Source of the DNA: Allacma fusca
Taxonomy: Eukaryota > Arthropoda > Collembola > Symphypleona > Sminthuridae
DNA length: 64,000 bases
Direction of reading: 5' to 3'
Assembly (NCBI GenBank): GCA_947179485.1
Contig: OX359249.1
Coordinates: 44,653,415 to 44,717,414 of the forward strand
Shown: positions 588 to 58,288 of the stretch, one piece after another
Layout of the letters: each line of letters starts with the position of its first letter
Position numbering within the stretch: the first letter of the stretch is position 1
Position numbers and translations under genes: made by a program
Notes under the pieces: generated by a model
Databases searched by the model: none
The model's input: only the letters and a program-made list of their open reading frames with translations
What the model was told of the DNA's origin: nothing

Positions 588-3500
588 ATGGCTACCACTG
601 AGGAAGAAAGCTGCCAGGGTAAACGCTTTGTGGTACCCACGGGATTAAAATGTTTACTGGAAGAAATGTCTAGAGAAGTGAGTACTTACCTACGCTACAC
701 ATCAAACACTACTGTATATGTTTGATTAGGAAGAGTGTCAGAATTTTTAGATGCAAAGCAAATTCTTACTGTCAAATAGGTACTGAGAAACCAGCCAGAG
801 AATATATACTTGTTCCTTGCAAACTACCTTGAAGAAAAATGTCGCAAGCAGTGCGGGCCGGTTAGTTCGTAGCATACACTTTTGTTAATAGAAATAGAAA
901 CTTGTACATTCACCAGAGCTCGCTTCAATAGATAATCATTTCATCGTTTGAAGGAATGTAGTAAAGATGAAGGTAGCGGCACAGGTGTCATGCCAAGAAC
1001 GACTAATGCAGATATCAATCCCAGTCTCAAAGGAGAAGCTCTCACCGGTACTACTCAAGGGTATGCTCCTAAAATTGACGAGGTCGCTCCATTTGGATAT
1101 GGTGTGGATGGACAGCCTATACCTGGTCCGAATCGAGACGCCCCGTTTGGTTATGGTCCAGATGGTAAACCTCTAACATCTCTTGACCCTAGAGCTCCAA
1201 ATGGGTACGGCCCAGATGGAAAACCGTTAGCCGGGGCAGCCTGTGTGGCTCCTTACGGATATGACAAAGACGGGAAGCCTTTAAAGAAGCCAGATCCTTA
1301 CGCACCATTTGGCTACCACCTTTTGGATGGTCTACCAGTAGCTACAAATGATCCCACAGCGCCATTTGGTTTTGGTCTTGATGGTAACCCACTTGAAACT
1401 CGTGACCCAGATGCGCCACTTGGTTACGATGTGGTTGGTCGACCAAATACCTATCCTGAGACAGTGTCCTTTTGTGGTGAGAAAGACTACCCTGGTGGGC
1501 TTGAAGCTGCTCAAGCACGAAATATGCCAGGTATCGGGCAGGCAGAGCAAAAAAATCAGCAGCAGGATGCATACAGTGGAGATTTCAGCGCAACATCCCA
1601 AGATGCGCAAATACAAACAGGTCCTGCTGGAGCTCTCAACAATTTTAATGGTCAACCCTTCGCAGGGGATGCTAACGCGAATTCCATACAGGGACTATAT
1701 GATGCAAGTTCAGCTGGTCATCCAGTCCCGCAGGATGCATACAGTCGTCTAGATCAATCAATTACACAGGGTCTTGATCAACAGGAAAGTCAGGTTGGTC
1801 GGGCACAAGTGCCGGGGCAATGCGACGGAGGAAGTGTGGTTTTCATTGGAGGCCCTGGGACTAATTTGCTACTGTCGTACAATCCTTGTTGTGCGGACAC
1901 ACAAGCACCAATAAATCATATGGCTAATGCTGTTTCATGTGGTGTTCAATTTGGAGGACAAGCAGGTATGGTCGACTGTGCTGGAATCATGCGATCCGCA
2001 ATGGAATGTATGCTATCCCGTGTGACCACCCTTCTCTCAGGCTTAGTGCTTCAAGGTATCAACAATAACGCACCACCTGCAGCTGGGAACCGGATTGGAC
2101 TTACGGATTACGTTACCAACCCCTGCTTTGGACCAAGGCAGCAGCAGAGTGGCCAATCTCAGTCACAACCTCAGGCAAGTAGAACAGGAACGACGGGAGA
2201 CGGTGCCGAGACGACTGTTTCAGAAACCAATGTTTTGGCAGGAGGACCAGACACAGAGGCCGATTCCGAGGCTTTGGTGATGGATGAGGAAGACACTGCT
2301 GACATACTTGAAGTTATCGAAGATCCAGCAGGTACTGCTGACATACCTGAAGATACCGAAGATCAAGCAGGCACTGTTGGGATAGCAGACTCAAGAGACC
2401 AAGCCTTTTCAGAAGAAGGAGCTCAGGAAGCCAGTTCCTCAGTAGCAACCGCAGCTCCCTCTGCGGGTGGTATACCCATCACCAATGATGACAATGTTTC
2501 AATTGAAGGTGCAGGAGGAGAAGAAGTAGTACCGATTGCCGGACAAGATAGTGCAGTAATACAGGCGTCAAAGGCCGGAATTTCAGTAACCGCCACGCCA
2601 AAACAGTCACAACCGATTGGTCTGGAGGACGAAGCAACTTCCAATCTGGAGGCTCTGAGCGTCAGCACCACAACAGCAATAGTTTCCAAACGTACAATAT
2701 CAATGAAAGCCTCTCCAAAACAGTCGCAAACGATTGGACAAGAGGGAGAAACAGCAGCAAATATGGGAGCACTTACTGCAAGCACCACAACAGCAGCTGC
2801 ATCCAAACCATCAATGTCAGTATCGGCTACGCCAAAACAGTCCCAACCGATTGGACAAGACGGAGGACCAGCAACAGATATTGGAGCTATTAGCGCTAGC
2901 TCCACGGCAGCAAATCCCTCTGAACCTACAATTCCTCCACCTGCCTCACCAAAAAAGTCACAACCTGTTTCTCAGGCTTTATCAGTCGCATCCACCATCA
3001 AAGGCCCTGCGACAAAACCTCGGCAACGCTGTATCCCGAAAGAATTATGGCAATACGTGCCAATTACAGGAGGTGGCGTATGTCCACGTGAAGCAGAAAG
3101 GTACGAAATGTCTAATATATTTTTGAAAATTAAAGATGTAAACAGAATAACAAGTCCAGAAAATTGTTGTACAATCGGATAACAAACTATATCTTTGATT
3201 TCCAAATCTGAAGCGCTGCTGGTGCACCGAAGATTCCGCCACGCCAAGCAGGATTAGCAAAATTGCAAGTGAGCAAAGGTTGCACACAAGGTAGCATGAG
3301 TGAATATGTGGAAGATATTCTTAACAGAGCGAAAGATATAATACTATCGACTAGAAAATACTGCGGAGGGGCAGCACCATCTGGAATACTACCTAATGGT
3401 CTCGGTGGCCAATCTGCGTACAGTACAGGCCAAGGAAATGAGCAACCCGCAATATGTGGAAATGGTGGTTTGGCCGAGCCAGTGGGTCCAGGAATCATGG

Positions 3501-5120
3501 GAAAGTACTTAAAGGAAATGGCCCCACAGTACCAGAAAATGTTTGCCCGTGTTTTAAGCCCCGAGGATCAAACAACGTTAACTTTACTCACTACGGTTGG
3601 AACCCTTCTGGATACAATTGAAGACACAGGACTCACTAGGATGGACCCTGTTCAACTCTGCAGTGATAAAACTCTCAGGGAGTTAGCCGACGTCGGTGAG
3701 AAAATGCTTCTAGGCTTGAAAGAGCACCTAATCAAAGTAAGGGCGACCCCTCCTGAGAATCTCACCAGCAGTGATCCATTCATGGCACAAATTACTAGGG
3801 AAGCCTATGAAGCTTTGGAGATTGGAGCAGAATCCCTAGAGGTTGCTGTGGGACTTTTACGCGACGTAACTAATCTCTGTGGAGAGCTCTCAGAACATCC
3901 CGAATTGCTGCAACAATGTGCGGTAGATTTGGAAGCTGCACGAAAGAAAAATGAAAGTCAATACAGAGAAATCGCTATCAAGCAGGAGGAAGCCTGCAAA
4001 CAAGCTGCGGCTCAGCAAAGCATAGAGTCCAGCAATCAGGGTAGTGATACCGCCGATGTGAACACATTGAAAGCTGAAGCATCTAGTCTTGATGGAGATA
4101 GTACCGATCAAGACATGGTAGTTGCTGAGGGTGACAATCTCGGTATAGGTGATACGACTGGAACCCCTGGTGAAGGTGAAGATGAAGATGAAGATTCAGT
4201 AAAAGGTGTCACACAGGATGAAGCAATAGGAAATGCCTCCCCCTCAACACAGGACGAAGCTTTATCCGCAGCTGGTCAAGAGGCAGATGATTATGGGAAC
4301 CAGGGTGTTACCTCAGAAGGTGAGACTGCTAATAGGGATCAAAATGATTCTGAAAATAAGGACGGACCCCCAGAAGGACTGGCTGCAAAAAGTGGTGGTG
4401 TTGAGAACGGTTTAAGAAATCAAGATGGTAGTGATCGAACATCATCAGGAAATAACGGTCCAAGCGCAGATGGCCTGGCTACCAATAATAGTCAGAAAGC
4501 TTCAGGAAATAACGTTCCACAGGTGGATGCCGGCTCTGCAAATAACAGCCAGAAAGATTCAGGAAATAAAGTCCCAGGGGCAGATGCCGGCCTCAGCCAG
4601 AAAGAAGCATCGGCTGCAAAAGATGGAGCTGGTGCAGCTACAACAAGCAAAGGCGCAGCAGCAGATACCTCAAGTAACAACAAGGACGCCTCGGGTCGTG
4701 GTCTCTTCCCTAGCGATGCCGGTACGAAGGAAAAGGCTCTAACCGATTCTTCCGGGAGATCATTAGCGATTTCCAGTCCCGGAAATAATGTACGTCTATT
4801 TTTTTAAAACATTTCTTGACATCCTAAAAATATTGACTTTCAATGTATATTATGAACTTCGCTCTCCACAGGTGCTGTCAGTACGGTCATCTGGCGGTCG
4901 AATCATGTTCATAACCGTTTCATTCGTGGTTGGCATGGTCGTTGGATATGCCATTGCCAGGTCGTTCGGCTTGTGGGGTATTAATGGACGCTCCCTGAGT
5001 AGCTTCTTCTCCAATTTTAGAGTTCCCGGATACTCGGCTTCCACAGAATCCTGTGGCATTTCCTTTCCAATAACTGTTCCAGAAACATGTCCAGAGACTT
5101 CTTGCAGCTATCCAAATTAG
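588..5120 (+). CDS. RIIa-domain, repeat-rich protein with C-terminal membrane helix
   Basis: Five exons keep one frame: 588-677, 780-860, 954-3100, 3214-4789 and 4872-5120, giving 1380 residues. Residues about 12-48, split between exons 1 and 2, match the RIIa dimerisation/docking fold (VPTGLKCLLEEM, then REVLRNQPENIYLFLANYLEE). This fold is known from PKA-RII, SPA17, ropporin and CABYR, and binds amphipathic helices of AKAP-type proteins, often in sperm tails. From about residue 102 come seven 18-residue repeats (APFGYGPDGKPL type). A Cys-rich patch follows, then acidic Ser/Thr-rich stretches, a 39-residue tandem repeat and Asn/Gly/Ser-rich low complexity. The last exon has one hydrophobic helix (MFITVSFVVGMVVGYAIA). 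The exon 3/4 join is the weakest: a second in-frame pair (donor after 3078, acceptor near 3231) also fits, and exon 4 onward could be a separate gene. I recognise the RIIa domain only; a CABYR-like role is inference. Confidence 0.7.
1086..1466 (+). repeat. Seven-copy 54-bp coding repeat (18 residues)
   Basis: Inside exon 3 of the RIIa-domain gene, seven units follow the pattern A-P-x-G-Y/F-G-x-D-G-x-P-x plus about six variable residues. One unit has an extra residue. The units differ from each other at the DNA level, so the array is old or under selection for protein sequence rather than freshly expanded. Confidence 0.85.
2575..2980 (+). repeat. 117-bp coding tandem repeat (39 residues, about 3.5 copies)
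   Basis: The core T/S-P-K-Q-S-Q-P-I-G recurs at a constant 117-bp spacing (cores near 2598, 2715, 2832, 2949), each followed by an acidic stretch and a Ser/Thr/Ala-rich stretch. The last copy is partial and diverged. An older acidic duplication (TADILE/TADIPE) lies just upstream at about 2295-2375. Confidence 0.85.
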
Positions 5121-6254: not shown

Positions 6255-8479
6255 ATGGCGTCTTCGGAGGATGTCCTCCTTCAAGTGCCATTTGTGAAGC
6301 ATAAAAAAGATGATGGGAATCTGTACTTGATGACAGAGAGATTGGCATGGATTCAGGGACTGTGACACTGTCCCACAGGTATTCGGACATCAAAAGTCTC
6401 AGAAGATCTCATCAGAGGGTAAACCGAAGATTCAGTTGCAGATCGTCCTTCACAATAATACAACTTATACGTTCTCTTCGTACATCCAGAAGGACCCCGT
6501 ATTCAGTTTGAATGGAGGAATCAAGTTAAAGAATTGTTGTTGCAGTTACTTCCCAAATTCCGGAGGTAAATTGATAGGGAATTAGAAGTCAAAAGTCGAA
6601 TTTTGAGTGAGAACCCGGCACTACTGTAACTGTACAAGGTGGAGGGAGTATTTTACTAAAATGCTTTGCTTTTATGGAATTTAAAGACAAACTGGATGGT
6701 GTGGAATGATTGTTTAGAATTGATTGTGCTGAATTTGTAAAAGTAAATAGTAGTTGGCATAATGAAATTTTAAATCTTCAGGACTTAGTAACTGAGGGGA
6801 TTGTGACATCGGAGGGATTTTGGACCGTTCATGCTCCACAGTATATGAACAAGAAGCCTGTACAAAATCAAGATGTTGGAGTTGAATCTGGATGTTTAGT
6901 ATGAATTTAATTGGGATATTATTGTGAATTTGCGGGAAGGTGTAATAATTGTACTAGATTGTGGTAATTTAATAGTTTATGTGTTGAATTTTCAGTCGGG
7001 TATAAAGCCACAAACTGATGGGAATGGATTGCGGTATAACATCACTACAGACATCATAGAATCTATTTTTAAAACATACCCAGCTGTACGACGGAAATAT
7101 ATGGAGTGCGTTCCTGCACAAATGTCTGAATCACAGTTTTGGACGAAATTCTTTCAGTCGCATTATTTCCATCGGGATCGAATGACTGACTACAGATATG
7201 TTTTCGGCTTGTGCCAAGGCTGATGATAAAAAAATGCGGAAAGAGTTGGAAAAGGTAAAAGAGCTAAACAGTAACGTACTAGCTGTTCTAGATGATCAGG
7301 AGGCCGTAAACCTCGACAGTGAACCTACTCCCGTACCCAGTAAATCTCAGCCAATCGCCACAGATGTTCTTAAGACAATGATAAAAAGGTAATAACCTAC
7401 TAGTAACTGCATAAATTGCAAATTAAATGCGTTCACCCAGTCTTGATCCACGATTTCTGTGAACTCTAGCTAATGTAATTTTAATGACAAGAATTGTCAA
7501 AAGATTTTTCTAAATGTTCCGTATATCTCTCCTTACTTTTATTTTCTGATTAGGTTCAATCAACATTCCATTATGGTTTTAAAAGCTTGTGAAAGGAATA
7601 GCGCTGAAAATGCTGCGGAGTCTAACGGGCAAACCAACGGTACCGATAGTTCTGGTGCACCTTTGACAGAAACACCTGCTAAAAAGGTAAATGAACATTC
7701 TAAACCTTCCGGGGAACGTGTATCGTGTAGAGTTTACATTAACATATCGGCCGCATTGTTCCGCAGGCTAACAATAAGTTAGACACTGAACAGACGGAGT
7801 TTGTAGAATATGAAGACTTAGGAAAGATCACTATCGAGAGCTTTAAGAATCTGAATTTGACTGAAGTGAACCGGTATTTAAATGGACCTGCGGGTGATTA
7901 TCAAACGGATCCAGTAACTCAAGATGCTCTTCTGTAAATTGTGCATCATTTAAAAGCCTTCTCGGAGCGTTGGACGATGAATCCACAGTTGATGGATGCT
8001 AAGACGGCTCAACAAATTCTAAATGATTTAAGTCCCAGTGGAGCTCTAATGAGAGCACATCATCGAGAAGGAATCACCCGTACTCCTACAGATTGCACTT
8101 TAGTGGTCAAAATGATCTAAATAACAAACTATTAATTACTACTATTCCCTCCATTTTAGAGTTGCTTCCACCAGAAGTGGAGACGGAAATGCGTAATTTG
8201 TACATTTCTCTGGGAGAGCTCCTGCGACATTTTTGGTCATGCTTCCCTCCCACCACCCCAGCTCTGCAAGAAAAACTCAAAAAAACTCACGAAACGTTGA
8301 AAAAGTTTGAGCAAGTCAAAATTCAGCAATTTAGAGAAAGTCATGCTCACCTATTGTCCATGAATCTGGAAGGTTGTTCAGAAATGTTTTCTTTCCAGAA
8401 GTCTTTACATTACAAAAATTACAGTGATTTTAATGATTGCAATTGGACACAAGAACCTACAAATAATATAAACAATTGA
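6255..8479 (+). pseudogene. GTF2H1: Broken intron-bearing copy of TFIIH subunit p62
   Basis: GTF2H1/Tfb1 is the TFIIH core subunit p62, with an N-terminal PH domain, two BSD domains and a C-terminal anchor. Homologous exons lie at 6255-6638, 6782-6898, 6996-7388, 7554-7686, 7767-8079 and 8160-8479, each with usable GT-AG signals. Clear matches are SEDVLLQV at the start, [51 protein letters not shown] and LGELLRHFWSCFPP. The frame is lost near 6345-6356, near 6385, near 6500 and near 7195. Three in-frame TAA codons (6567-6569, 6627-6629, 7935-7937) sit where relatives have sense codons, two of them Gln. The end after 8380 no longer resembles the family. Kept introns argue for a DNA-level duplicate, not a retrocopy. 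The gene is essential in eukaryotes, so an intact copy should exist elsewhere. Confidence 0.85.
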
Positions 8480-8565
8480 ACCATGCCATAGCTGTTAGTA
8501 TTTCATTGAGAACTAGCATACCACGCTTTTTAGATTCTTCCTTGGGTTTCATCCAGCCTCCGAAC

Positions 8566-10076
8566 CAGAGGTGGCCACACGACTCTAATTTTTAGTAGTG
8601 GTAGTGGAATAGCGGCAAAAAGTAGTGTAGTTATTGAAGATGAAATAAAATAATATTTATTGGTAGAGTAGAACGACGGAGACATCAGCAGATAAGTAAA
8701 TAGTAGCTACTAGTGCCCGTTCACCATTGCTCCTAAAATGTAGTATAGAATAGTGGATCCGACTTTAGTTTGGATGTAGTGTAGAAGTAGTTTACATGCA
8801 TACTCAAAGTCCAATAAAAAGTAGTGCTACCTGCTACCCGACTACCCGAGTAAGCACTATACTTAAAAATGGAATGTGTGACTGTTTTGTCATTACTTTC
8901 TATAGCTTACACCGTTACACCGCGTTTCAATATTCGAAATAATATTGTGCGTTTGCGTGGATGGATATAGTAACGTCTTGTATTTGCATTGGAGCATTGC
9001 GAATTCTACTTTGTGTTGGGATCCTTTTTAGCAGTAGTTGAATCTGCAAAAGCAAAATCATAGTATTGATCTCTATTTATTTAAGTGCTTTAATCCTCCG
9101 TTAATTAACAGTTCTAAAATTCAAGCCAAATCCAGATTATCGCAGATTCCATAAAATGGCAACGGACAGTCCATTGTCAATTGTAATTATTCCTTGTGTC
9201 AACTTGTAACACGTTTTTATAAGGTATAGTCAGTGGTTCTCATGTATGTACTTGAGTTATACACGCATGTGAATGTTGTCTAAAACAATAAACTAGTTTT
9301 TCAAAATGCCTAACCTACAATTGATTCTTGTAAAGAGCGGTCCTGCACACCTTTAATTTAGCATAAACGTCTAGCTTCATTGACCCAGGATAAACTGTAT
9401 TTACATACGATGAAACGGGATTTTTCCCCTAGGAATCATATTTATAGCATATATTTAGAATTTACGAGCCTTTTTATGCTTACATTAAAATTATATGATT
9501 TTAGGCTGAGATTAAATTGCACGGCTGTTCAGTGAACTAGTAGTATATTGCATTGTGTGGCTTTTTACTGCGTAGAGTAGTGTGATAGTTGCATTGTAGA
9601 GTAACGCTAATTTTTAGCTTTCAAGTAGTGGTAGTGGCAGAGTAGAGTAAAGGTGCTCTCTGAAAGCAAAACTGTACTGAAAAGTAGTGTAATGGTAGTC
9701 TTGATTAATAACAAAATAGTATTAGTAGAGTAGTTGTCAAAAACCATTTTTGTGTATAGTGTATTGGTAAGTAGTGGCATTTACCCTAAGTTTTTAGAGT
9801 AGTGTAGTGTAAAGGCGTGGCCCGCAGGTCATATCCCAACCCAACCCAAGTCTTTCCAGCAAATAGGCAGCCCGAACCCGCCTGACCCGAAAATCAATTT
9901 CTGAAACATCAGCCCGCCCCTTCCTGACAATATTTTTTTAGGCCCACACCAGACCGCAGCCCGACAGGTTTCAGTTAAGACGGCCCAACCGAGCTTGCGG
10001 GCCCATTTTACTTTGCACTGATCCATGGCGGAACTGATATTGGATGGAGCAGTGAAATTTTTAGAGTGGTATTCTG
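8566..10076. mobile_element. hAT-like element with GTAGTG-rich ends (nested insertion)
   Basis: The left end CAGAGGTGGCCACACGACTC leads into about 300 bp of degenerate GTAGTG/GTAGAG motif. A unique middle (about 8880-9520) follows, then a second motif block (about 9530-9804). After the nested element, the sequence ending TTTAGAGTGGTATTCTG is a rough inverse of the left end. The CAGAGGTGGCCA start is typical of hAT termini. I could not find matching 8-bp duplications at the outer ends, so the limits are approximate. No transposase is present. Confidence 0.55.
9805..10046. mobile_element. Small CCCG-motif element nested in the GTAGTG element
   Basis: A 200-bp block of CCCAACCC / CCCGAACCC motif interrupts the right end of the surrounding element. 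TAGTGTAAAGGCGTGGCCCG at its left is a rough inverse of CGGGCCCATTTTACTTTGCA near 10000-10017. A possible 8-bp target duplication, gagtagtg (9797-9804) and gagcagtg (10047-10054), would place the right end about 25 bp beyond that inverted repeat. The right limit is therefore uncertain. Confidence 0.5.
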
Positions 10077-10985
10077 ATGACTGCTTTTAAATTTTTCGGC
10101 CGACGGGATGAAATTGTCTAGTTAAAGTGAAATACTGGAGGACCAAAAATACTATCTCATTTATAATAATGCTATTACAGTAAGTTTCACGGCTAAAAGA
10201 ATCTAAATTGTGATATTAAAATTAATATGATTTTTTTTATTCATAAATGATATTACAATAAAAGTAACAGCTGTACGTTTACTATTAACTGAGGTGAGGA
10301 AATCATGAGGAAACATTTTGCTAATTACGCATCAAAAAAGTAAAAGACATGTGAAATATAGTCATTGGAATATTCGGTGACAAATGTGGTTTGCCTAGAT
10401 TAGATGACGAACAAGAACTTCCTTGTATGATTTATGCAAATCGGTGAAACTGCAGAAAGTAAAATGAAAAATCAAATGGAGTATTATGTACTAACAAAAA
10501 GAAGGCGACCACATAACTGTAAGACAACACACACATTATTTATGTTTCGATCTTTTATCACGAAACTGAGGAATTGAAAAGCGGAAATCATGAGAGGTCA
10601 ATACATGTATAGAGGGGTTTCAGACATTTGAAGGCGAAGTGGAATCCTTGCACATGTAAGTACATATGCCCATCTTGTTTTTGAAGTCGTGTATAAATAA
10701 ATAGTACACCTATAGATTCCCTATTCGCCCCAGGATTATAGTCAAGCTAATGTTATAGTCGTAATATATATATTAATCCTGATTAACCCAAAGATATGTC
10801 TAAACATACCCTGATTTTTTCCAATTCAAATAGAACTAATAAAATAGTACTACCCTTCACAGAATAAGTATAATTACAGATATTTGATAGACAGATATCT
10901 ACATAGTACATCAGTACTTTACACAGTACTTGTACTGTAATGAACTCCGCTGAAATGGAAATAGTGCTCGTACTAAACTATGGGC
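10077..10985. other. Intergenic, no feature seen
   Basis: AT-rich spacer between two repeat elements. I see no coding or structural signal. Confidence 0.3.
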
Positions 10986-11567
10986 CATACCTTGGCGAAC
11001 TCAAGAGTTCTGAGTTCCGAACTCGAACTCAGCTCACATTCGAGTTCCATAGAATCTGGTTTTGAGTGCGAGTTCGGAGCTGTTTTAAAAACAGCCGCGA
11101 CTTGAGACTGAGAGCCAATCATTTATGGCAGAACTCAAATGAATGAGTGCGAGTTCGAAATGTGGACCTCACCAACACCAACATCCTAATTCCATCTATG
11201 CGTAAATATTGATATTGTGGAATAACGATTGTTGTGCATGCCTGCGTATTTCTTCTTATCGAATTCGGTCAATGAATCTTTTGCAAAATAATGGTTGCGA
11301 AGAGCTGAAATAAAAAAATATGTGGCAAAAAAATGTTCTAAATGGAATTGACGTATTTAAATGGCAGTATACTTTGATTCACGAAACGTAAATTGAGGCT
11401 TAGGTGAGTTCGAGGCTGAGTTCCAAAGGGTAATAAACGAGCCTCAGAGTTCGGGTTCGAGGTAAAGAATTACGTAGAGCTGAATTACTCTATGAGTTCG
11501 AGGCTTAGAGATCTTGCGCATGTTAAACTGAGTTCGAGTTCGAGCTCTAAATTTTTGCCGGGGTATG
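10986..11567. mobile_element. hAT-like MITE with GAGTTCGAGTTC interior
   Basis: An exact 8-bp duplication, ctatgggc, flanks the element (10978-10985 and 11568-11575). The ends CATACCTTGGCGAA and (reversed) CATACCCCGGCAAA form short inverted repeats. Beneath each end lies a block of degenerate GAGTTCGAG motif in both orientations, with a plain AT-rich middle. There is no coding capacity. The 8-bp duplication and short ends fit a non-autonomous hAT-superfamily element. Confidence 0.85.
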
Positions 11568-11726
11568 CTATGGGCATCCATATTTACGAGTCCGTAAAAA
11601 TATTGAAAAGAGATTGAAACTAAATCTGGGTTCTGTTTTTTGTGACGATTATCTGTAACCTATGACATTAAACTAGTACATACGTTTATACTTATCTATT
11701 AATTATTTTTCGACTACAAGCATCAT

Positions 11727-12055
11727 CTCCAGGGTGTCCCAGAGTTATTGTCCAAATTGAGACCCACCCTGTCTTTCCTGATGGTCTGCCCAATCGCTCC
11801 TTATAAGGTCCCTGAAAAATGTTCCTCCTTGAGCGGTGCTGTTATTTTGTAACGTTACATATTAGCAATGTTTGTATCAATTCTTTTTAAATTTTAAATT
11901 TTTATTATAATTTTCAATTTTGAACTCCGACCTCTAAAATTTCAAGGTCAGTCTGAGTTGGCAGTTGATAGTCACAGATGGGATTACGACGTGGGCTGAA
12001 GATCATCAAGAAAACTGTGGGCCACAATTTTAGACACTCACTCTGGGGCACGTTG
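11727..12055. mobile_element. Small inverted-repeat element (CAGGGTGTCCCAGAG ends)
   Basis: CAGGGTGTCCCAGAG with AAATTGAGACCC at the left is mirrored, imperfectly over about 35 bp, by the right end (GGGCCACAATTT ... CTCTGGGGCACG). Possible 8-bp flanking copies are agcatcat (11719-11726) and agcataat (12056-12063), one mismatch. It is non-coding and its superfamily is uncertain. Confidence 0.6.
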
Positions 12056-13173
12056 AGCATAATATATAAGCACTTATGTATGTTGCTTACGTATTTACTA
12101 GTATTTTATTAGTAAATACAAATATTTTATTCAAAGCAGAAATTACCAGGGCTAGCATGAATTTTGAAACCATATATAGGATCCAATTGAATACTGTTAG
12201 GTATGTTGTGAATCAACCCACGACTGCAGAATCATTAGTGCTGGATGTTTAGATACTGTCCACCCACAATTTTGTAGGAATAACGATAAGACTGAAGGTA
12301 TCTAGTATTTTCTGAACAGCAGTCACAAAAAATGGAGACAGTAACAAAAAAATAATACAAACTAGGATTAAAAACAGAGTATGAAGCTGAATGTTACACT
12401 TAAAATAAGTTAGCAAGCAGATCTGTACTCTGAGTGCTCTGATTATGTGCATTTGCATATTGAAAATGCATCAATACGAAAGGATAATGTCAGTATTGTA
12501 AGACGACAGTTCCGGGGCAACCGATTCCTAGAGTTTACAAACTTGTGCAAACCAACATTGTAGCAATCATATGTATCCACAAGCTGCATAATTAGTAGTT
12601 GCATTAAAGCATTAGTATTTTATTCCATTAGGTAAAAGCTTCATTCATTCGAGAGACAAATGTGTATGTAGATACATATATTTTTTGTATCTGTGCAGTA
12701 TGTTCTTTGGAACTTCTTATGGATTTTCTAGCTTCAATAATAATTCCCTCCCCACTATTCCCATTACTGAACTTCCGTAGATTGTTATACAAGTCTTACG
12801 TTGCGGCTCTTTTCAGCATTAAGAGTCAGTGACTTCCTAAAGGATACCGGGGCTAAGAAAAATCCCTGGCATAGATTGATTGACCTGCTTTAGAAAAGAT
12901 CCACAGGTACATTCCCCCTATCCTCAGGAGCTGCTAAATTTCTCCCAGCTAAGCAATTGGTCAGACCGAGTTCCCAGCTGAGGCTACTCAACAATTTCTT
13001 AGTGTTAGAGAGTACAAGAAGGGATTATAGTTATCAGTAATTTTGAAATAATGCATTTTTTTTTAAATCCAACACATTTTACATATTGATATTGAGGGTA
13101 AATCTTCTCGTACTATTTTTGCTTGCATCGTGCAACTGGATCTTCTTGTTTGTTTCGTTGTTCATCACTAACA
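12056..13173. other. Intergenic, no feature seen
   Basis: Spacer between transposon relics. It holds only short AT-rich ORFs with no family resemblance. Confidence 0.3.
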
Positions 13174-13812
13174 AAGTAACCCTCGACAAATGTCTCATCT
13201 AGATCGGAATGAAATTGTGTGGGAGCTTAGGTACCTGGTCCAATGTCCCAACGCGCACAAAAGGTCGGACATCTTGCCAAGTTTTGCTCCCAAGTTTTAA
13301 ATTATAAATCCTCGGTAAAATCTCTTTGGAAACTTGAATTTTCCCATTTTAAATCTTATAAGAAATCGTTTTCGAAAGTCGGTGAATGAAGATAGTTTAG
13401 AAAATTTTTATTTGGCAAGAATTCAAAGTGGTTTCATGGCAAATATATATTACCTATTTTTGGTCACAACTGGTTTCTTGGTCTCAGATTGGCTAATCTT
13501 GGTCACATGGGTATGTTTACTTGTTTGCTTAAAAATGTGAGTTCTAACTAAGTTTGGAATTGTCCTTTATGTATCTGGAACGCCCCGCATAGTTACAATT
13601 TTAAGGAAAATACACCAACCGGCGGAAAAACGGTTTAACGATTTTCGTAAATATTTTTACGGGGCAAGTTAAGTTTTAATTGAAGAAATTTGTACTATTT
13701 CCCGTTTTGAGGAACTTGAAACATTGGGAGTCGATACCACGTTAAGGATTATGTGGTAATATGAAATTAAAAGTTAGAAAAATATTACAAAAACGTTGAA
13801 ATTATACGCAAC

Positions 13813-14316
13813 TAGTGTTTCTGAACGGTACCAAAACATGGACTCGACCCGACTCGTTTTCCCGAACCGAAAAAATCCCAATTCTGTTCCCAAAACCGGA
13901 ACCGGTATTTTCGAGTCCGGGACATTTTTGGCTTCCCGGAACCGATCCGGAAAATAAAAGCGGTTCCCGAACCGGTTCCGGTTCCTTTCCAAACAGTCAT
14001 GTTCAGAAAAAAAATGTATATGATTCATTTTTATGGAAGCCAAAATTGTATCGCATTTTCAAATGATAGTTGACAAATGCTGGCCAAATGCAAGTTTCGC
14101 GTTTTCATACAAAACGGCAGCTTTAACAAACCATTCCCGAAAACTTTCGGTTTTGATTTTTGTACCCGAAACCGGACCGAAATTTGACGGTTCATAAACC
14201 GATGACCCGAAACCGGACCGAAATGTAACGGTTCTTTAAAACGTTGACCCGAAACCGTACCGGAACCGAAACCGAACCGGAACCTCGGGAATTCCCGATA
14301 CCGAACAGAAACACTA
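13813..14316. mobile_element. hAT-like MITE with CCGAACCGG interior
   Basis: An exact 8-bp duplication, tacgcaac, flanks the element (13805-13812 and 14317-14324). The ends TAGTGTTTCTGAACGGTACC and (reversed) TAGTGTTTCTGTTCGGTATC are inverted repeats with three mismatches. Two blocks of degenerate CCCGAACCGGAACC motif flank a short AT-rich middle. ORFs across it in several frames are products of the motif, not genes. It is a non-autonomous hAT-superfamily element sitting inside the larger inverted-repeat element. Confidence 0.9.
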
Positions 14317-15029
14317 TACGCAACCAATACTAATTATAAATTTTTACAAGGATAATTATTTTTGAATCCAAGAATCGTGATTGACTAGACGTAAACACAC
14401 GATTTTGAACAACTTTTCGGAATCTTGCCAGCAAAGCCTCATCTCTTGAAATAAATGTATGAACTTACTAGCGTGAAAAGCAACCTGGGCTTCATTCAAC
14501 TTTTTAAATAAATAAATTTAAAAATGTATGCATTAAAATCAATAAATCGTTTTAACAAAGCAAAAATATGATTTTTAAAAGTACACTAGAACTATAGGTT
14601 GGAAAGGTATTCCAACTTTCATTACGCTTAAGTAAGTAATTGCAGGGGTAGAAAAAATGAACTGAGGATATAAATTCGAAATGTCCCATGGGCATTAATA
14701 ATGCTAATATTTTCTTCCTACAAAAGCAAGTAAGCTTAATTAAAGCTGGGATACATTTCATACCCAGTTTTGTACTTCTTAGGGCTCGATGTACAACAAC
14801 TTCAATTTTGTTTCTTTAAAACTAGTTTATTTCTCTCAGCTAGTTATTAGGGGCTCTTGTATGAATACTGCTGAGTCCAACCAAGGTACGCATTTGCTTC
14901 TCATTTAATTGTAAGTACCTTGTTGCGTTTTCCGTTCCTATTTAATGAAATCTCCGGAATTCAAACCGAATTCTGAATTGTCTGTATGAAATCTTGTTAA
15001 CAGTCTTGCTCTGCTTTAGTTTAAAACTT

Positions 15030-15315
15030 CATTCAAATCTACTAGACGAATTAACATTTTGTTTTAATGAAGTAACCAAAATAGGCAACATAATAGACCC
15101 AGCTGTCAGATGGGAAAAAGATAGAAATCAACCGATTGAAGTGGATCATGAAAAGAAGTAGATTTATCAACTTTGTGTTCCTTTCTTTAAGCAGAAATAC
15201 GATTTGAAAAATATTGAAGTTATTGGGCTATTAATCGGAGCTCGTGGAACTATTTTTGAACATTTTGAACAATTTAGAAAACGATTTAATTTATCTAAGC
15301 AGCTTATAAAATGAT
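15030..15315 (+). mobile_element. LINE fragment, C-terminal end of reverse-transcriptase ORF
   Basis: The plus-strand frame reads IGNIIDPAVRWEKD, QPIEVDHEKK, one TAG stop, then IYQLCVPFFKQKYDLK, IEVIGLLIGARGTIF, FEQFRKRFNLS. The IDPxxRxE, EVxxEKKxIY and EVIGLLxGARGTI pattern is one I associate with the region downstream of the reverse transcriptase in arthropod non-LTR elements. No reverse transcriptase core is present. Identification is from memory of the motif only. Confidence 0.6.
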
Positions 15316-15697
15316 GTTGTTTGCCAAAATTCGTGGATCTTATAGGATAGCACTTTATCAGTTGTACAATTAATATATTTATATCCAAGTTTAAAACAAA
15401 TATTTTTCTGCAACAAAAAATGTTTGAAATCATTATGTACTGCGTCGTAAGGCAAATACCATTGTGATGTGATATCAGTGAAATAAATTATTTCTTCCTC
15501 TCTTGTAATAAATTTATTTCTAGTTAATTACAAAAAATTATTTCATGTTTTAATTTTTAAACTTCAGATTTTACCTTTCAGTAACTTTTCCCATTTTTTG
15601 TCCGAAACTTTTGTTCGCACTGGGACATCGGGCCAGGTACCTAAGCGCTCATAAAATTTCTTTCCGGTTCGAAGGGGGCATTGGGCGGGGGTTACTT

Positions 15698-16561
15698 GTG
15701 GATAAGATTCACTAGAACTATGTCTTACCTGAAGATATTCCTTTTATTTACCATTACGAAGCAACACTAGCTCTTGCATCACATTAAAAATAAATTAACG
15801 GGACGCTAATGCCTTCAATTAGTCAAGGTTTTGAAGCACCATAAATCAACTCATGCAAGGAGTTCTTTTCATAGTTAGTAACACAACCTCACAGTTAAAG
15901 TTGACCTTAGTTCAATCGCATATCTAAATTGCAACTGGAAATATGACGAATGGCATTAATTCTGTGATTGACAGATTGATCAAATGATACTGTACATGTA
16001 TATTACTTGCATCGTATCAAAAACCATTCATTTATGAAAAAGCTGATAACGTGTGACTGAATTCAAAAGGGCAAATGCACATTAACGTAGAATACAACAA
16101 ACATCGTATCATACTCGGATTTTACTTCTCACTTAATATTACAGGTTTATAAAATCATCGACAAAACAGGATAGCCGTGAGAACATATTTATATAATTAT
16201 ACTTATTTTTCTATAATTTAAAATTTCATGTACTCTCCAGTTTTTAGGGCACAATTGTACTAGATAGGTATGGATGCGATATGGGTGGCAGTGTGATTGA
16301 GGACAATTAAATCCGAGACTGACTCAACTGAATTTAAATTAAGAGTTCTGGTTTCTTGTTGTAATAAAATAATAAAAATAAATAAATAATAAAAAATACG
16401 ATCAAAAGTTCACTCATATACTTGGTTCAATTGAGGTGTGTTGTCTTGATTTAGCTGTTAGTTTGATTTCTCAGAAATTAAAGTAAAATGACTTTGAAAA
16501 AACAAAACCGCAATCTGAAAAAAGAAGGATATTTTTGTGTACTTAAGTATGTGTTATTACC
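15698..16561. other. Intergenic, no feature seen
   Basis: AT-rich spacer between the 2.5-kb element and the next hAT-like element. Nothing supportable. Confidence 0.3.
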
Positions 16562-17236
16562 CAGTGCTCTCAATTTTACTCATTACTCGAATTTTTCATA
16601 AAGTGAGTAAGTGAGTATTGTACTTACTCGTACTTACATCTGCGAGTATGAGTAAGTAATGAGTAAGTAATTTTAAAAAGGTTGATGTTTAAGTAAGTAA
16701 AGAGTAAGTACGAACACTCATTCCCCAGTGTAATGTAAGTAATGAGTAAGTAAGACGAAATGCAAAGTATTAAAAAGTAAGTATTGAGTAAGTAAACTCT
16801 TCTTTACTGGAGTAACTACCATAGAAAAAATGTTCTCCGACAATGTCCATGACTTATATATGGTTTATGGAGGCAGATAACACAGGCCATAGGCAAACAA
16901 TGCCTTTAAATACTTGCGACGATGCAACTCGTTAAACTTGAGTCGTTGACTACACTACCAAAGATGGGAGTGATGTGAATTATATTTGAAAATGAGTAAG
17001 TATTACTTGAGTACTATGCAGGCAAAAGTAAGTAAAGAGTAAGTAATATCAGCTTATTTTTGCGAATAAGTAAGTAAAGAGTAAGTATTACACTGCGACC
17101 TGAAATTTTGAGGGAGTAATGAGTAAGTAAGATAGCCACCATGAAGCCCCTGAGTAAGTAAAAAGTAAGTACTGGACATCATGAGAGACAAAATTATGAG
17201 TTAAGAGTAAGTAAGGGTGTCTAACTGAGAGCACTG
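16562..17236. mobile_element. hAT-like MITE with GAGTAAGTA interior
   Basis: The ends CAGTGCTCTCA and (reversed) CAGTGCTCTCA are identical inverted repeats. The flanks ttattacc (16554-16561) and ttattact (17237-17244) are an 8-bp duplication with one mismatch. The interior holds about 18 copies of GTAAGT, mostly as GAGTAAGTA, plus two in reverse near the left end, around a unique middle at about 16800-16990. It is non-coding. Confidence 0.9.
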
Positions 17237-17499
17237 TTATTACTTACCTCCCAAAATGTCTGACTTTACCCCAAATCAGCTACAAACCTTTAAATACCCG
17301 TGTGGTAATGATACCCGGTAATGGTACACAAGTGGCGTCCAAAACTACCCTTTTACAGTCGGCACGACTGTTAACAGGTAATGATGACCAGCCCCTTTTC
17401 CTCAAAATATGTTACTCTTGTTTCACACGTTATTTGAGGAAACCGTGGATGGGAAGCTGAATAACGATTCCATTCCATGCATGATAACTAAATCTACAA

Positions 17500-18227
17500 T
17501 AGCATCACCCCGTGGGATATTTTAGGCCCGTACCCGCCCGCGGCCCGTAAATGTTTACCCGTGCCCGCCCGGCCCGAAATTAAAGTTCAACAATAAAGCC
17601 CGGCCCGGCCCGTAAAATTTAAAAAAGCCCGTAGCCCGCCCGCTAATACCAGTCCAGCTTGTAAATTCATAGATATAGACCCAGAACAATTTTTTAATTC
17701 AATTTTTCATTTTCGCCTTTTTTTGAATGAAATTGGTAAGAGCTGGTGTTGCTTTCACTGCAGAATTCTTACAATTATGTTTGGCCAGAGTTGACGTACC
17801 TCCTTAGCGCGATTGCCTGCTAAAATGTCCCTGCACTCATTGCATTCACATAATTTATGGAAACCTATATTCAACTAGTACGTGTTTAAATGATTTCCAA
17901 ACTTGCAATCTTCCGACTGTTTCCTGCAATTTCATCCGTTGACATTGGATGTCAAGTCTTTTTTAAAGATAAAATTACAAACGTTCGAAAATCGTGTTAT
18001 GTATTCAAGCAAATGTACTTTTACAACCCCTGATCCAGCATGCACCACACATGAATTTTTCCACGGGCTTTTACGGGCTTTCACGGTCTTTTTCAACCGC
18101 ATTGAAAAGACCGTACCCGCCCGTAGCCCGTCAAGTGTAATAAATTTTACCCGTACCCGCCCAAAGCCCGGGCGGGCCGGGCTTTTTACGGTCTTACCCG
18201 CAAATTTCAACCGCCCGAGATGCTCTA
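17500..18227. mobile_element. hAT-like MITE with GCCCGTACCCGCCCG interior
   Basis: An exact 8-bp duplication, atctacaa, flanks the element (17492-17499 and 18228-18235). The ends TAGCATCACCCCG and (reversed) TAGAGCATCTCGGG are short inverted repeats. Two GC-rich blocks of degenerate GCCCGTACCCGCCCG motif (about 17525-17645 and 18058-18220) surround an AT-rich unique middle. The long ORFs on both strands over the right block reflect the motif and are not genes. Confidence 0.85.
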
Positions 18228-21200
18228 ATCTACAATATGTAGTAAATGAATATTAATAGTTGCAAACATTTTCAATGGTACTCAAAAAAGCAGTACCACA
18301 TCCGCGGGAAATCCCAATGGTATATAGTTTCTTACTTTTAGGTTCTCAAACCTTGCTTTAACCAAAGATATCCACATACCCTACTATTACTTCTTCCTCT
18401 CACTTATTGTACCGCAACTGTACCCTCCTCCGCATGTATTAAACATGACGTCAGAAATAACGTAAAAAAACTTGAGAATTCTGGTAACTTTTGTTTTTAA
18501 TTATCCATGAAATCCCTAGGGAATTTTCAAATTCATTGTGGTGCATAGTCATTAATTGTAAGCAGAGTTTTTATTTCCTACATCAATTCCCTAAAAACCG
18601 GATATTAATTCCTTTAAAAATTTTAGTGCACATAGTGCTTATAGTGGTAAAATTGAGAGTTCAAAGCCTGAGAAAGATGGCTCACTATACGCCCTTGAGT
18701 TTTTTAAACCTTCACTTTTAATCCTTAGCTTATAGGGATAAAGCAGAACTTTGAGAGTTTATAGGCAGATAAAGACGTTTCATTATGCCCCAAGGGTTTT
18801 TTAATCCTTGTCTTTATGGAATTTGTCTATAAATATTAGAATGATTAAAATTAGAAAACAAAATGTATGCCTTAGAATTAGAAACACAAAATTACATTTA
18901 CAAAAAATAGTATTCTAGTAAAAATATTATTAGAGAAGAGCTTTGAGGGTGAATGAAATGGCTGGGAATAGGGAAGGCAAATGAGGATGCACATAACCGA
19001 CCCTCGCAATTGAACATTAACATTTAAATGTTGTGCCGTTGTGCGTTTAAAGACTCGTACCAACGTACGATGGTAAAGTGAGAATAGTTTTAACTCAAAG
19101 GAAATTGATTGTGAATCAGAGAGTGATTAGTTGTCTGTACACAAGCTCTAGACTAGAGTAACTCTCCTCAAGTTGATTGTGAGTTGTAGGTTGGAGTATA
19201 GTAGGCTATCATTTTAAAAATTGACCAATTATCACATTTTTTTTAAATCAACCTTCAATCGTGGAATATATCATAAAATAACGAGCAAAGTCAAGGCAAA
19301 ATAATGCTTAGAAATTGAAGCATTGAGTCTTAACTGGGAACACTTTTAAAGGTTGCTCGGAAGTAACTGCAGTAAAGGTAAGCCCTTGTTTTTTGACGTC
19401 ATTTGTATTACCTTGATGTAATCGCCTAGATTTAAATTGCACTTGGCCGTGAGGTAGATCATTGTGAATTCTTTTAAAAACTGGTGGTTCTTCGAGTTTT
19501 AATGTAATCCTTTGTAGTAACCTATTTAAAAATAGATGGGAAACTGGGATTTATAAGTGGAAGTGGAAATTATTAGGCTGTTTTTGATTTATGTGTTTAT
19601 TCCTTATTTGCTAATTGTAAGTATATTGCTACAAAGTCCCGCCGCGGACTCGATTGTTTACTCCGAGTAGGAATCGTGTTGTCAGTTAAATTACTGATCA
19701 GGTCAGCCTCAACTAGAATAATATAAATAATTGAATGGTGTGTTTTTTGCGTCGTCCCAACTGCTCAGATCATATTCCACAATATTGTATTCAAATTATT
19801 ACAGATTGCGGAAACTGTCAGTCCGGAGGAGTCTTTGAGTAATTAGTATTCACGTGTCTGTAATGTTGGTGATACAATTGGATCAGTGCTCTTATGCAGT
19901 CAGTAATTGAATTTGGAATTAGCTTGTGGAATTCGGGAGTGCGTCAGTGAGATAATTGTGCATGTCGAGGCAGTCCGCTCGTGTTGTTAATATAATTCGG
20001 ATCGGACACTCGTGGGTTAATTAGTATAAAGAAATCCCTTTCAGAAGACTAACTTCATAGTATTTTTATGGGGGTTCCCAGTAGTTGAAGGTGAACATTT
20101 TATAATTCAGTTATTGTAAGGAGTAATGACATATGTGTGACCCATGTGATGTGCAGGAATGACATGGAAGCCCTCAGGTTGACTGCTTATTCTCTTGAAG
20201 GGTTCGTTAAGAAGGAAGTCTTCATATCATAATCATTCTCTAGATTTTTGATGAAGGAATGAAATGGTATTAGATGGGAAATATTTCTGATTGTTTAATT
20301 CCAGACTTGTTCCAATCAATTTGCTTAAAATTTTGCCTAAGGAGGAACAGCCAGCAAGAGTAACTGGCATGGATCATTTATGGAATAGAATGAGATAGCT
20401 ACAACTCCGATGATTCGATATTAGTTTTATAAAATCGTAAAGAGCCTGCTTTATGGTTATTTTCGTCAGAAGGAAATGTAAATACTGATTAGTTAAGTCT
20501 CGAATGTAAAAGTTGATTTCTTTCTTACCGTTTTTGGGTTTAGAATAGCTAACTCGAAATCATGGCTACGAGTCTACCGTTATTTTGGAAATTCCGTTAG
20601 CTGATATTTTTGGAACAGTAACGTTATTTCGTGGTATTACTCATTACCGTTATCTGTATTTTTATCAACTTCTGTGTAGTTGCATTTTTCAGTGATTTTA
20701 AGTCGAAACAGAAAATTAATGTATAGGTATACATAGCTAGTGCCGATGTAATACTATACGAATTATCAATGTGAATTAAGTCTGAAAATAAACGTCTGGT
20801 TCATGTAAGTCCATACATTAGCATTAGGTCCAATTGTGAAAAATATTTCCTTCATATCGTTCGCTAAATTTTAAAAGGTACTATTTTGTAGATATTTATT
20901 ATTAAAATTATTATTAACACATACACATGTGATTGCAAGTAAAATCGTTTCGAGTTTCTTGAACTTGAGAGTCAATTAAGGTTATAACCATTTGTGAAGA
21001 GCTAAATAATTTGTTGCAGAACGAGTTTTATTGCGAGGATAGTTATTTATGTAACTATCCTTTTTGTACATATAATACAAACAGTAACCATGTATGTAGT
21101 TTTGGAAATCGAATCACCAGTTACAGATCATAGTATTAATGAAATGGTTTTCAGTGAAAGAAACTGCGTGGCTTAGTTTGATCCTTAATTCCTTCTGTTC

Positions 21201-57127: not shown

Positions 57128-58288
57128 CTACTGCGGCAGAGGAACGACAACTTGAACATAGGAAACAGGGAAGTACCCAGTTTTTCCATGCACATTTCCT
57201 TCATACCAGTTTTCGTCGATACGACTTACTAGTTGGATGTGATCACCTTCCCGAAATCCTAATTCACCAGGATTTTCAGGTTCAAAATCATACAAAGCTT
57301 TACACACTGGTGTCTGAATGTTCCTAGATGCTGCGGGTTTGAGAGGAGGTGTGACTGGTGAGGATGACGAAGAATGTGCTCCAGAATTAGGATGATTAAT
57401 GCCACTCGGGAAGTAGGGAGGAGGGGGGCCTCCATTGTTATTCGAGGCAGGGAAAATCAGATCATTTTCCGTATTTCTTTGTAAATCTTGCAAGGTTTTT
57501 GGTTTGTACTCCCGTTTAGGTCGATTCGCTGCCTCTCGTTTCTTCTCATTAAGTGCGACAGTTAAGCCCTTCATAATCTCAGCACATTGCATGTGATACT
57601 CGTACAAGCATTCTGCGAAAGCTGATAACTGTGACACCTGTTCCACATCATTTTCGAGTAAATTATACATACCCATTTGTGCTAAATGCAAACTTTCTGT
57701 GAATTTATCTTCTGCTAATCGAATTTCTTCTTCTGAGATGTTTGCCGTGTTTCCCCTTGTTACCATCTTTCGTTTTTTGCAATCAAAGTCTAAACGCCGA
57801 CCTTGAAGCTTCTTTCGATGATGGATGACTTCTTTCAAATCTTTAGTTTGAAGCTGGTGAAGAGGATCTAGGAAATTCTGCTTCACATTGTCATCTAATG
57901 AGTACTTGACATCCGCCATTTGCTTTAATGTCTCTCCCGCCTCTACAAGTGACTGACCAAACACACTGTCGTCTCCAATTTTCCTCCCATAGGTAATCAT
58001 ACACTCGCCCAGTGTTCCTTCTGGCTGGGGATATGTGGACGCTTTGGCTTGCCCGCTCAATTTCGATATACCCTTAACAGCTGCCATCTTCGCTCGAGCA
58101 GTAGGATTTGGCTGTAAATATTCTTTGGTTTTATTCTGCAACTCTTCCACAAGCTCATTTGTGATATCTGTTTTCTTCTCCATATCAATGAATTCCTCAT
58201 CCAGCTTTGTTCCCTCCACGCCCCCAATTTTCTCATTAACAAATTGGTTAGCCTTGTTTATCTGCTTCTTCAACCCCGCAAATGCCAT
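57128..58288 (-). CDS. EndoA: Endophilin A (N-BAR plus SH3), single exon
   Basis: One uninterrupted frame gives 386 residues, close to the Drosophila protein. Endophilin A senses and bends membranes at clathrin-coated and synaptic vesicle necks and recruits dynamin and synaptojanin. The N-terminal amphipathic helix MAFAGLKKQINKANQFVNEK starts at the ATG at 58286-58288, which I prefer to the in-frame codon at 58309 because it matches the family exactly. The BAR domain runs to about residue 250 (PNPTARAKMAAVKGISKLSG, KDLKEVIHHRKKLQGRRLDF). A Pro/Ser-rich linker follows (GGPPPPYFP), then a C-terminal SH3 at about 327-383 (ALYDFEPENPGELGF, WYEG, GYFPVSYV). The coding sequence is intact and under evident constraint. 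No intron interrupts it, unlike every other intact gene in the window; an intron in the 5' UTR is still possible. Confidence 0.95.
   Translation of the reverse strand: MAFAGLKKQINKANQFVNEKIGGVEGTKLDEEFIDMEKKTDITNELVEELQNKTKEYLQPNPTARAKMAAVKGISKLSGQAKASTYPQPEGTLGECMITYGRKIGDDSVFGQSLVEAGETLKQMADVKYSLDDNVKQNFLDPLHQLQTKDLKEVIHHRKKLQGRRLDFDCKKRKMVTRGNTANISEEEIRLAEDKFTESLHLAQMGMYNLLENDVEQVSQLSAFAECLYEYHMQCAEIMKGLTVALNEKKREAANRPKREYKPKTLQDLQRNTENDLIFPASNNNGGPPPPYFPSGINHPNSGAHSSSSSPVTPPLKPAASRNIQTPVCKALYDFEPENPGELGFREGDHIQLVSRIDENWYEGNVHGKTGYFPVSYVQVVVPLPQ

What the first reader, a model, noticed from the sequence alone, without database searches (positions are those of the whole stretch)
8566..18227. 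A repeat nest where unrelated hAT-like elements share one architecture
Within 10 kb, five small elements have different end sequences but one design: short inverted ends, a block of a short degenerate motif under each end, and a unique AT-rich middle. The motif differs per element (GTAGTG, CCCGAACCC, GAGTTCGAG, CCGAACCGG, GAGTAAGTA or GCCCG). Three of them carry near-perfect 8-bp duplications. In hAT elements such as Ac/Ds, subterminal motif arrays are transposase binding sites. Here the arrays make up most of each element, which suggests families that evolve by expanding the binding motif of their own transposase. The binding role is inference.
Basis: partly seen in the sequence, partly recalled or inferred. 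Interest (0 to 1): 0.75.

Follow-up and report, generated by a model that had tools for sequence, protein, structure and literature searches.

The report
Springtail mini-transposons with evenly spaced arrays
This stretch of what is probably a springtail genome is a nest of small jumping-DNA elements of the hAT kind, each with its own repeated word near its ends; about half of the families examined keep those words on the same roughly 42-letter spacing, which suggests that the spacing fits the shape of the enzyme that moves them.

Summary
The interval holds six hAT-type elements, not five: E3, E4 and E6 have perfect 8-bp duplications, E5 has 7 of 8; E1 is cut at 9810 by E2 and both lack right ends here. 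E1, E3, E4, E5 and E6 have many copies in this genome (Allacma fusca, inferred from size and scaffolds); E4 has perfect duplications in 28 of 30 loci, E5 in 26 of 30 (window copies included).

Transposase-bearing partners were found for two: E5 is an internal-deletion derivative of a 4,552-bp element with its own perfect duplication; E3 has a 4,644-bp partner. Both partners already carry the arrays, so the small elements inherited them.

New point: array words recur mostly at 41-42 bp, about four helical turns. With one row per related group, this lag leads in 18 rows (0 of 10,000 rotations; top 5% of lags in 9-11 of 18). About half the families lack it, and blind control windows give mixed results. 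In E5, nine 21-bp cores are 83% identical, their spacers 26%; cores changed about three times less than spacers between E5 and its partner. Best reading: sites for an oligomeric hAT transposase with a conserved ruler. Binding is untested.

The parts
8566..9809 (+). E1: hAT miniature element, GTAGTG/TAGAGTAGTG array, 5' end CAGAGGTGGCCAC; 3' end missing, interrupted by E2
   Evidence: 39 further places at 85-88% identity, not all full length; 3 of 3 sampled copies have both ends CAGAGATGGCCAC/CAGAGGTGACCATTC and a perfect 8-bp duplication
9810..10004 (+). E2: left part of another hAT-like element, end TAAAGGCGTGGCC, CCCGAACCC/GCCCG words; right end absent
   Evidence: 82% identity over 193 bp to an element in L013 (205-1028) that has both ends and a 7/8 duplication; no right end found in the window
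10986..11567 (+). E3: hAT element, ends CATACC, GAGTTCGAG array, duplication CTATGGGC at 10978-10985 and 11568-11575
   Evidence: partner A3 at G000:C1:51805918-51810561
13813..14316 (+). E4: hAT miniature element, ends TAGTGTTTCTGAACGG/TAGTGTTTCTGTTCGG, CCGAAACCGG array, duplication TACGCAAC
   Evidence: 28 of 30 perfect duplications; 375 exact 3' ends
14163..14287 (+). E4 3' array: units starting 14163, 14204, 14246 (spacing 41, 42)
16562..17236 (+). E5: hAT miniature element, ends CAGTGCTCTCA, GAGTAAGTA arrays, duplication TTATTACC/TTATTACT
   Evidence: internal-deletion derivative of A5 at G000:C5:51454296-51458847
16649..16794 (+). E5 left phased array: 21-bp double-word cores at 16649, 16690, 16732, 16774 (spacing 41, 42, 42)
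17025..17213 (+). E5 right phased array: cores at 17025, 17067, 17109, 17151, 17193 (spacing 42); the last core is degenerate
17500..18227 (+). E6: hAT miniature element, ends TAG(AG)CATC, GCCCG array, duplication ATCTACAA; 41-42 bp is not among its leading spacings

Best explanation
The nest consists of non-autonomous hAT transposons that kept the ends of larger hAT elements and lost the gene (shown for E5 and E3, inferred for the rest). Each family has its own short word, repeated under both ends. I think the words are sites for the N-terminal DNA-binding domain of that family's transposase, and that they are laid out on a ruler: in the clearest case (E5) two words 11 bp apart form a doublet, and doublets repeat every 41-42 bp, about one and four turns of the helix. 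One face of the DNA could then meet several binding domains of an oligomeric (Hermes-like) transposase at once. The word changes between families with the protein's specificity; the spacing stays because the oligomer's shape stays. Shown: hAT ends, duplications, two partners with the same arrays, shared 41-42 bp spacing in about half the families, word conservation in E5. Inferred: binding, oligomer geometry, purpose of the ruler.
For: Duplications and ends in copies. Partners with PF05699: A3, E = 4.6e-16; A5, E = 2.7e-14. A5 is 4,552 bp with TCCAAAAC on both sides; E5 1-418 and 423-675 align to its two ends. Ruler: with one row per related group and rows of unsure array ownership left out (18 rows), lag 41/42 leads at word lengths 5, 6 and 7; 0 of 10,000 rotations reach it at any lag. 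Without E4 and E5, which suggested it (16 rows), P over lags = 0, 0.0001 and 0.0030; for rows from transposase loci only (12 rows) 0.0015, 0.0019 and 0.0088; for every earlier row plus L118 and L119, nothing dropped (25 rows), 0 of 10,000. The rows with a high 41/42 rank have no detectable blastn similarity in their arrays except within the L081/L115/L116/L117 group and between L008 and L082. Two unrelated flanks fetched after the idea was formed ranked 41/42 at 9 (L118) and 2 (L119) of 114. E5: cores 83% and spacers 26% identical between units; against A5 cores differ at 13 of 189, spacers at 37 of 166, Fisher 3e-5. Literature, passages only: Herves transposase binds a repeated 8-bp word, with mutated sites at L-end bp 32-36 and 43-45, which I read as about 11 bp apart (PMC3143072); Hermes octamer BED domains bind repeated sites whose exact phasing is called crucial for the left end (PMC10368747).
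Against: About half the families lack the ruler: E6, E2, L002, L003, L005, L071, L077, L078 and the nested element in L070 rank low (word length 6); L007 has a 29-bp tandem unit. A general 10.5-bp periodicity was weak: P 0.066, 0.071 and 0.31 in three sets, 0.038 combined; a 41.5-bp cosine test gave 0.032, 0.018, 0.68 and 0.084. In 38 array windows picked without regard to transposase, 41/42 ranked 5 of 115 (P 0.018 at that lag, 0.95 over lags), and 200 windows without arrays also ranked it 3 of 115 (P 0.001 at that lag, 0.11 over lags); a second background gave z 1.1 and 0.5. E3 words versus rest: 7 of 118 versus 51 of 436, P = 0.09. No DNA-binding family was recognised at the N-terminus of the A3 transposase; A5 had only a sub-threshold DBD_Tnp_Hermes match, E = 0.048. 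In Hermes, binding sites beyond the first 50 bp are reported as not needed (PMC10368747, passage), which speaks against long arrays being essential. Array limits were trimmed by eye.
Confidence: 0.68

Rival explanations
1. The arrays grew by tandem duplication of a ~42-bp unit during replication or repair, and the spacing is a leftover of how they grow, not a constraint.
For: E4's units keep similar spacers (period 41, 87% matches); L080 gives a strong 41-bp peak; L007 has a plain 29-bp tandem array; windows without arrays also showed a raised 41-bp lag in one control.
Against: It does not explain why families without detectable similarity share 41-42 bp, nor why E5 spacers are at chance identity while cores and spacing are kept.
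Confidence: 0.17
2. The words bind a host factor or act on chromatin or transcription (for example a silencing signal), and transposase binding is elsewhere, at the inverted ends.
For: The words lie on one strand at both ends in E1 and mostly so in E5, unlike the inverted tips; no DNA-binding domain was recognised in the A3 transposase N-terminus.
Against: Words differ family by family as transposases do; in Ac, Herves and Hermes the analogous repeats bind the transposase (PMC3260210, PMC3143072, PMC10368747; passages).
Confidence: 0.1
3. The blocks are ordinary simple-sequence expansions, and the ends and duplications are coincidence.
For: None beyond the low complexity of some words.
Against: Duplications in 28 of 30 and 26 of 30 loci, 375 exact 3' ends against 0 in the control, and transposase partners.
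Confidence: 0.01

Closest known systems
Maize Ac/Ds (hAT)
   Same: Deletion derivatives of a full element; repeated AAACGG words in the terminal 200 bp bind the transposase cooperatively (PMC3260210, passages). E5 stands to A5 as a Ds-del element stands to Ac.
   Different: Other words and ends; no 41-42 bp ruler came up in the passages read.
Herves of Anopheles (hAT)
   Same: Repeated 8-bp binding word near both ends, two mutated sites in the left end about 11 bp apart by my reading (PMC3143072, passages).
   [quoted passage not shown] different word.
Hermes of Musca (hAT)
   Same: 8-bp duplication; BED domains of an octamer bind repeated subterminal sites, and their phasing in the left end is called crucial (PMC10368747, passages).
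   Different: 4-bp sites AAG(T/C) in an asymmetric layout; sites beyond the first 50 bp reported as not needed.
hAT-derived CGG-binding proteins
   Same: hAT N-terminal domains have diverse measured specificities, and the motifs of the four hAT proteins match subterminal regions of their own element (PMC8097297, passages), so word diversity has a precedent.
   Different: That work measured binding preference; the word spacing does not occur in its text, and no springtail is named in the passages read.

Membership tests
hAT superfamily (E1, E3, E4, E5, E6) | 8-bp target-site duplication | tested here: met
   E4 28/30, E5 26/30 perfect, window copies included; E6 3/4, E1 3/3, E3 1/3 perfect in other copies (by eye); E3 and E6 perfect in the window
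hAT superfamily (E1, E3, E4, E5, E6) | Short inverted ends, usually CAG or TAG at the tip (recalled) | tested here: met
   CAGAGATGGCCAC (E1), TAGTGTTTCTG (E4), CAGTGCTCTCA (E5), TAGAGCATC (E6); E3 begins CATACC, an atypical tip
hAT superfamily (E3, E5) | Mobilising element encodes a transposase with the hAT C-terminal dimerisation region | tested here: met
   PF05699 in A3 and A5, E 4.6e-16 and 2.7e-14, with matching ends; intactness of the gene not established
hAT superfamily (E1, E2, E4, E6) | Mobilising element encodes a hAT transposase | tested here: inconclusive
   No partner with these ends at 35 loci examined of 150 scored matches
hAT superfamily (E2) | 8-bp target-site duplication | tested here: inconclusive
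   The window copy lacks its right end; the one relative checked, in L013, has ATTTGAAC/ATTTGAAA, 7 of 8
hAT transposase with BED finger | N-terminal zf-BED domain | tested here: inconclusive
   No Pfam match for the spliced A3 N-terminus at E <= 1; a C-x2-C and H-x4-H pattern is visible by eye only
Miniature non-autonomous element (MITE) | Short, no transposase, many copies, ends shared with a larger element | tested here: met
   E5 and E3 against A5 and A3; many copies also for E1, E4 and E6, but no larger element found for these

The most novel reading that the evidence does not exclude
hAT transposases across many families share a quaternary ruler: their subterminal sites are spaced at four helical turns (41-42 bp), with doublets one turn apart, so that the word evolves freely while the spacing is fixed by the oligomer. 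One springtail genome would then hold dozens of natural pairs of transposase domain and target word on a common scaffold, enough to read out the recognition code and to predict oligomer geometry from DNA alone.
Probability: 0.4. Interest if true: 0.75.

Novelty: new variant of a known kind. Interest (0 to 1): 0.6.

Why it matters
[quoted passage not shown] PMC10368747, passage). A spacing shared by families with different words separates what the protein reads from how it is assembled and gives a directly testable geometry. The genome also offers many word and transposase pairs side by side.

Tried and rejected
Simple-sequence expansion was rejected from the copies. The motif-expansion story was rejected for E5 and E3 because the partners already carry the arrays. 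A search for E4's partner through its 3' end was limited by the listing: 100 of 375 places shown, all on one scaffold; none was noticed next to the listed transposase places when read by eye. A strict count of arrays at transposase loci (7-mers seen three times in 400 bp, against the window outside the nest) flags 14 of 35 flanks, against about 2 expected. The 14 hold repeats of a family (L003, L004, L006; L081, L115, L116, L117), and L074 is flagged by a word of the neighbouring element, not its own. More degenerate arrays are visible by eye in L008, L071, L073, L075, L080, L082, L083 and L085; L001, L069, L072, L076, L087, L088 and L089 show none that I could see. The arrays of L077, L083 and L085 may belong to neighbouring elements. 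The purine bias of the word strand was looked at and not pursued: no control was made. A first scan for arrays in flanking DNA was replaced. One Pfam scan for a BED finger gave nothing.

Dropped rows. One search has 23 rows with nothing dropped: P over lags 0 of 20,000; 0.0005 without E4 and E5 (21 rows); 0.0044 for the 17 rows from loci; 0.064 for 14 of these, with L008, L074 and L082 left out. (23 rows) left out L007, L082 and the 5' end of the nested element in L070 and added L116, L118 and L119: 0 of 10,000 for word lengths 5, 6 and 7; 12-14 of 23 rows have 41/42 in their top 5%. On checking, L116 proved related to L081, so I rely: there the 18-row set leaves out L008, L082, L071 and the L070 5' end as related and L077, L083 and L085 as unsure owners, and does not add L115-L117; the 25-row set drops nothing. 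In one search, 21 of 80 windows were dropped as tandem and 3 as known, and the remaining 56 were reduced to 38 unrelated ones. Of the five flanks fetched later (ranks of 41/42: L115 5, L116 1, L117 7, L118 9, L119 2 of 114) only L118 and L119 are unrelated to earlier rows.

Literature: searches listed no title or abstract start that mentions a 41-42 bp spacing in hAT ends; this covers only that open library and those terms, and no paper was read whole. One search, with 'helical turn', found 0 papers.
Full report
What was checked. The window is part of a 392.7-Mb genome in 91 contigs. Its size and scaffold lengths fit the springtail Allacma fusca (392.8 Mb, six chromosomes; PMC10427803, abstract and passages); this name is an inference. 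I read 8000-18800, mapped repeats and words, and searched the genome with each element.

The elements. E3, E4 and E6 have perfect 8-bp duplications in the window and E5 has 7 of 8. E4 and E5 each gave 40 scored places, the limit of the listing, at 96-100% and 97-100% identity. Of 30 loci fetched for each, the window copy included, 28 and 26 have perfect duplications with different target sequences. Ends of further copies were sampled and read by eye: E6 3 of 4 perfect and 1 at 7/8, E1 3 of 3 perfect, E3 1 of 3 perfect, 1 at 7/8 and 1 none. E1 in the window is 85-88% identical to the 39 other places listed and ends abruptly at 9809, where E2 begins. E2's end sequence TAAAGGCGTGGCC is seen on both sides of a related element in L013, 205-1028, with a 7 of 8 duplication, and E2's right end was not found in the window. 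So the interval is six elements, two of them incomplete.

Partners. I examined 35 of the 150 scored places with the hAT dimerisation region. L075 carries E3's right end beside a transposase, and L090 carries E5's. With their upstream parts they give A3 (C1:51805918-51810561, 4,644 bp) and A5 (C5:51454296-51458847, 4,552 bp). A5 is flanked by TCCAAAAC on both sides; A3 has no matching duplication. PF05699 matches are E = 4.6e-16 and 2.7e-14. E5 1-418 and 423-675 align with A5's two ends at 86% and 89%, so E5 is A5 without about 3.9 kb. E3 aligns to A3 in the same way, in three pieces. Whether these transposases are intact was not established. No partner was found for E1, E2, E4 or E6. L070 holds an E1-family copy with another hAT, array word TAACG, inserted in it.

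Arrays are widespread. Downstream of hAT transposases I saw words such as TAGAGGTAG, GTAGTGG, GAAGGAAGG, CGGATAGG, AACTGAAC, GAGCGTGAGGG, CAGGGA and TTCGGTT. In several cases the array runs up to a hAT-like end where related copies diverge (L003/L004/L006, L073/L084, L081/L115). For L077, L083 and L085 the array may belong to a neighbouring element. A strict count flags 14 of 35 flanks where about 2 would be expected, with some families counted more than once and L074 flagged by a neighbour's word.

The ruler. In E5, cores of two GAGTAAGTA words 11 bp apart start at 16649, 16690, 16732, 16774 and at 17025, 17067, 17109, 17151, 17193. The nine cores are 83% identical pairwise and the spacers 26%. 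E4 has units at 14163, 14204 and 14246, also with an 11-bp step inside. I then asked in all families which distance between identical short words is commonest, using as null a random rotation of each family's lag profile. The first test (23 rows, nothing dropped) put lag 41/42 first: 0 of 20,000 over all lags; 0.0005 without E4 and E5; 0.0044 for 17 rows from transposase loci; 0.064 for 14 of these. A later test contained two related rows, so I repeated it with one row per related group and without rows of unsure ownership: 18 rows, 0 of 10,000 at word lengths 5, 6 and 7, with 41/42 in the top 5% of lags in 11, 9 and 9 of 18 rows; without E4 and E5, 0, 0.0001 and 0.0030; loci only, 12 rows, 0.0015, 0.0019 and 0.0088; every earlier row plus L118 and L119, 25 rows, 0 of 10,000. 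Rows with a high rank are not alike by blastn outside the groups named. Two unrelated flanks fetched afterwards ranked it 9 and 2 of 114. A lag of 11 bp was the commonest lag between 8 and 30 bp in the rows from loci and about twice the mean in E1-E6, where 10, 17 and 27 bp were as high or higher.

Results against. About half the families lack the spacing. In 38 array windows chosen blind to transposases the lag ranked 5 of 115 (P 0.018 at that lag, 0.95 over lags), and 200 windows without arrays also ranked it 3 of 115; another background did not show it (z 1.1 and 0.5). A general 10.5-bp rhythm is weak, and a 41.5-bp cosine test is not significant in the blind windows (P 0.68). Array limits were set by eye for several rows.

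Conservation. Between E5 and A5, cores defined by position alone differ at 13 of 189 sites, the spacers between them at 37 of 166 and the rest at 37 of 320; no gap falls in a core. For E3 and A3 the trend is the same but not significant (7 of 118 against 51 of 436, P = 0.09); there the words were defined by sequence, which favours the trend.

Reading. The published biology of Ac, Herves and Hermes (passages) makes binding of the transposase the natural role of the words, and diverse specificity of hAT domains is documented (passages). What I did not see in the listings of the eight paper searches is a spacing of four helical turns shared by families with different words. The simplest account is that the oligomer sets the spacing and the binding domain sets the word. 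The main rival is growth by 42-bp duplication. The E5 spacers speak against it as a sufficient cause, but E4 shows that such duplication does occur. The Hermes result that sites beyond 50 bp are dispensable warns against taking every site as needed.

Noticed in passing
window 13174-13263 and 15608-15697: Two 90-bp arms, 77% complementary, 2.3 kb apart, enclosing E4: possibly an older inverted-repeat element into which E4 inserted.
   Followed up: no
L070 (G000:C1:41973300-41978300): An E1-family element interrupted by a second hAT with ends CAGGCCTGG/CAGACCTGG, a TAACG array, an 8-bp duplication GCTAGTAG (read by eye) and a 632-aa open frame with PF05699.
   Followed up: partly
L007 (3' flank of a hAT transposase): Subterminal array made of a 29-bp tandem unit with GAAGGAAGG, a different layout from the 42-bp one.
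   Followed up: no
window 936-4807: Two long open frames, the first rich in APFGYGPDGKPL-type repeats and with 39-bp and 117-bp coding tandem repeats; not identified.
   Followed up: no
window 57128-58309 (- strand): 393-aa open frame that looks like an endophilin-type protein with a C-terminal SH3-like end (by eye, no family search).
   Followed up: no
E1, E5 and 3' flanks of transposase loci: Array words lie on the same strand at both ends of E1 and mostly so in E5, and are often purine-rich on the transposase's coding strand (no control), so the two ends are not mirror images.
   Followed up: partly
L022, L030, L031, L016 flanks: Further unassigned arrays with words CGGGTAC, ATCGGAT, CCGAACC and TGGGTAC, also with 41-42 bp lags among others; probably more hAT families.
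   Followed up: no
E3 family: Many E3 matches come as two pieces with a different stretch between the halves, which suggests at least two subfamilies with different middles.
   Followed up: no
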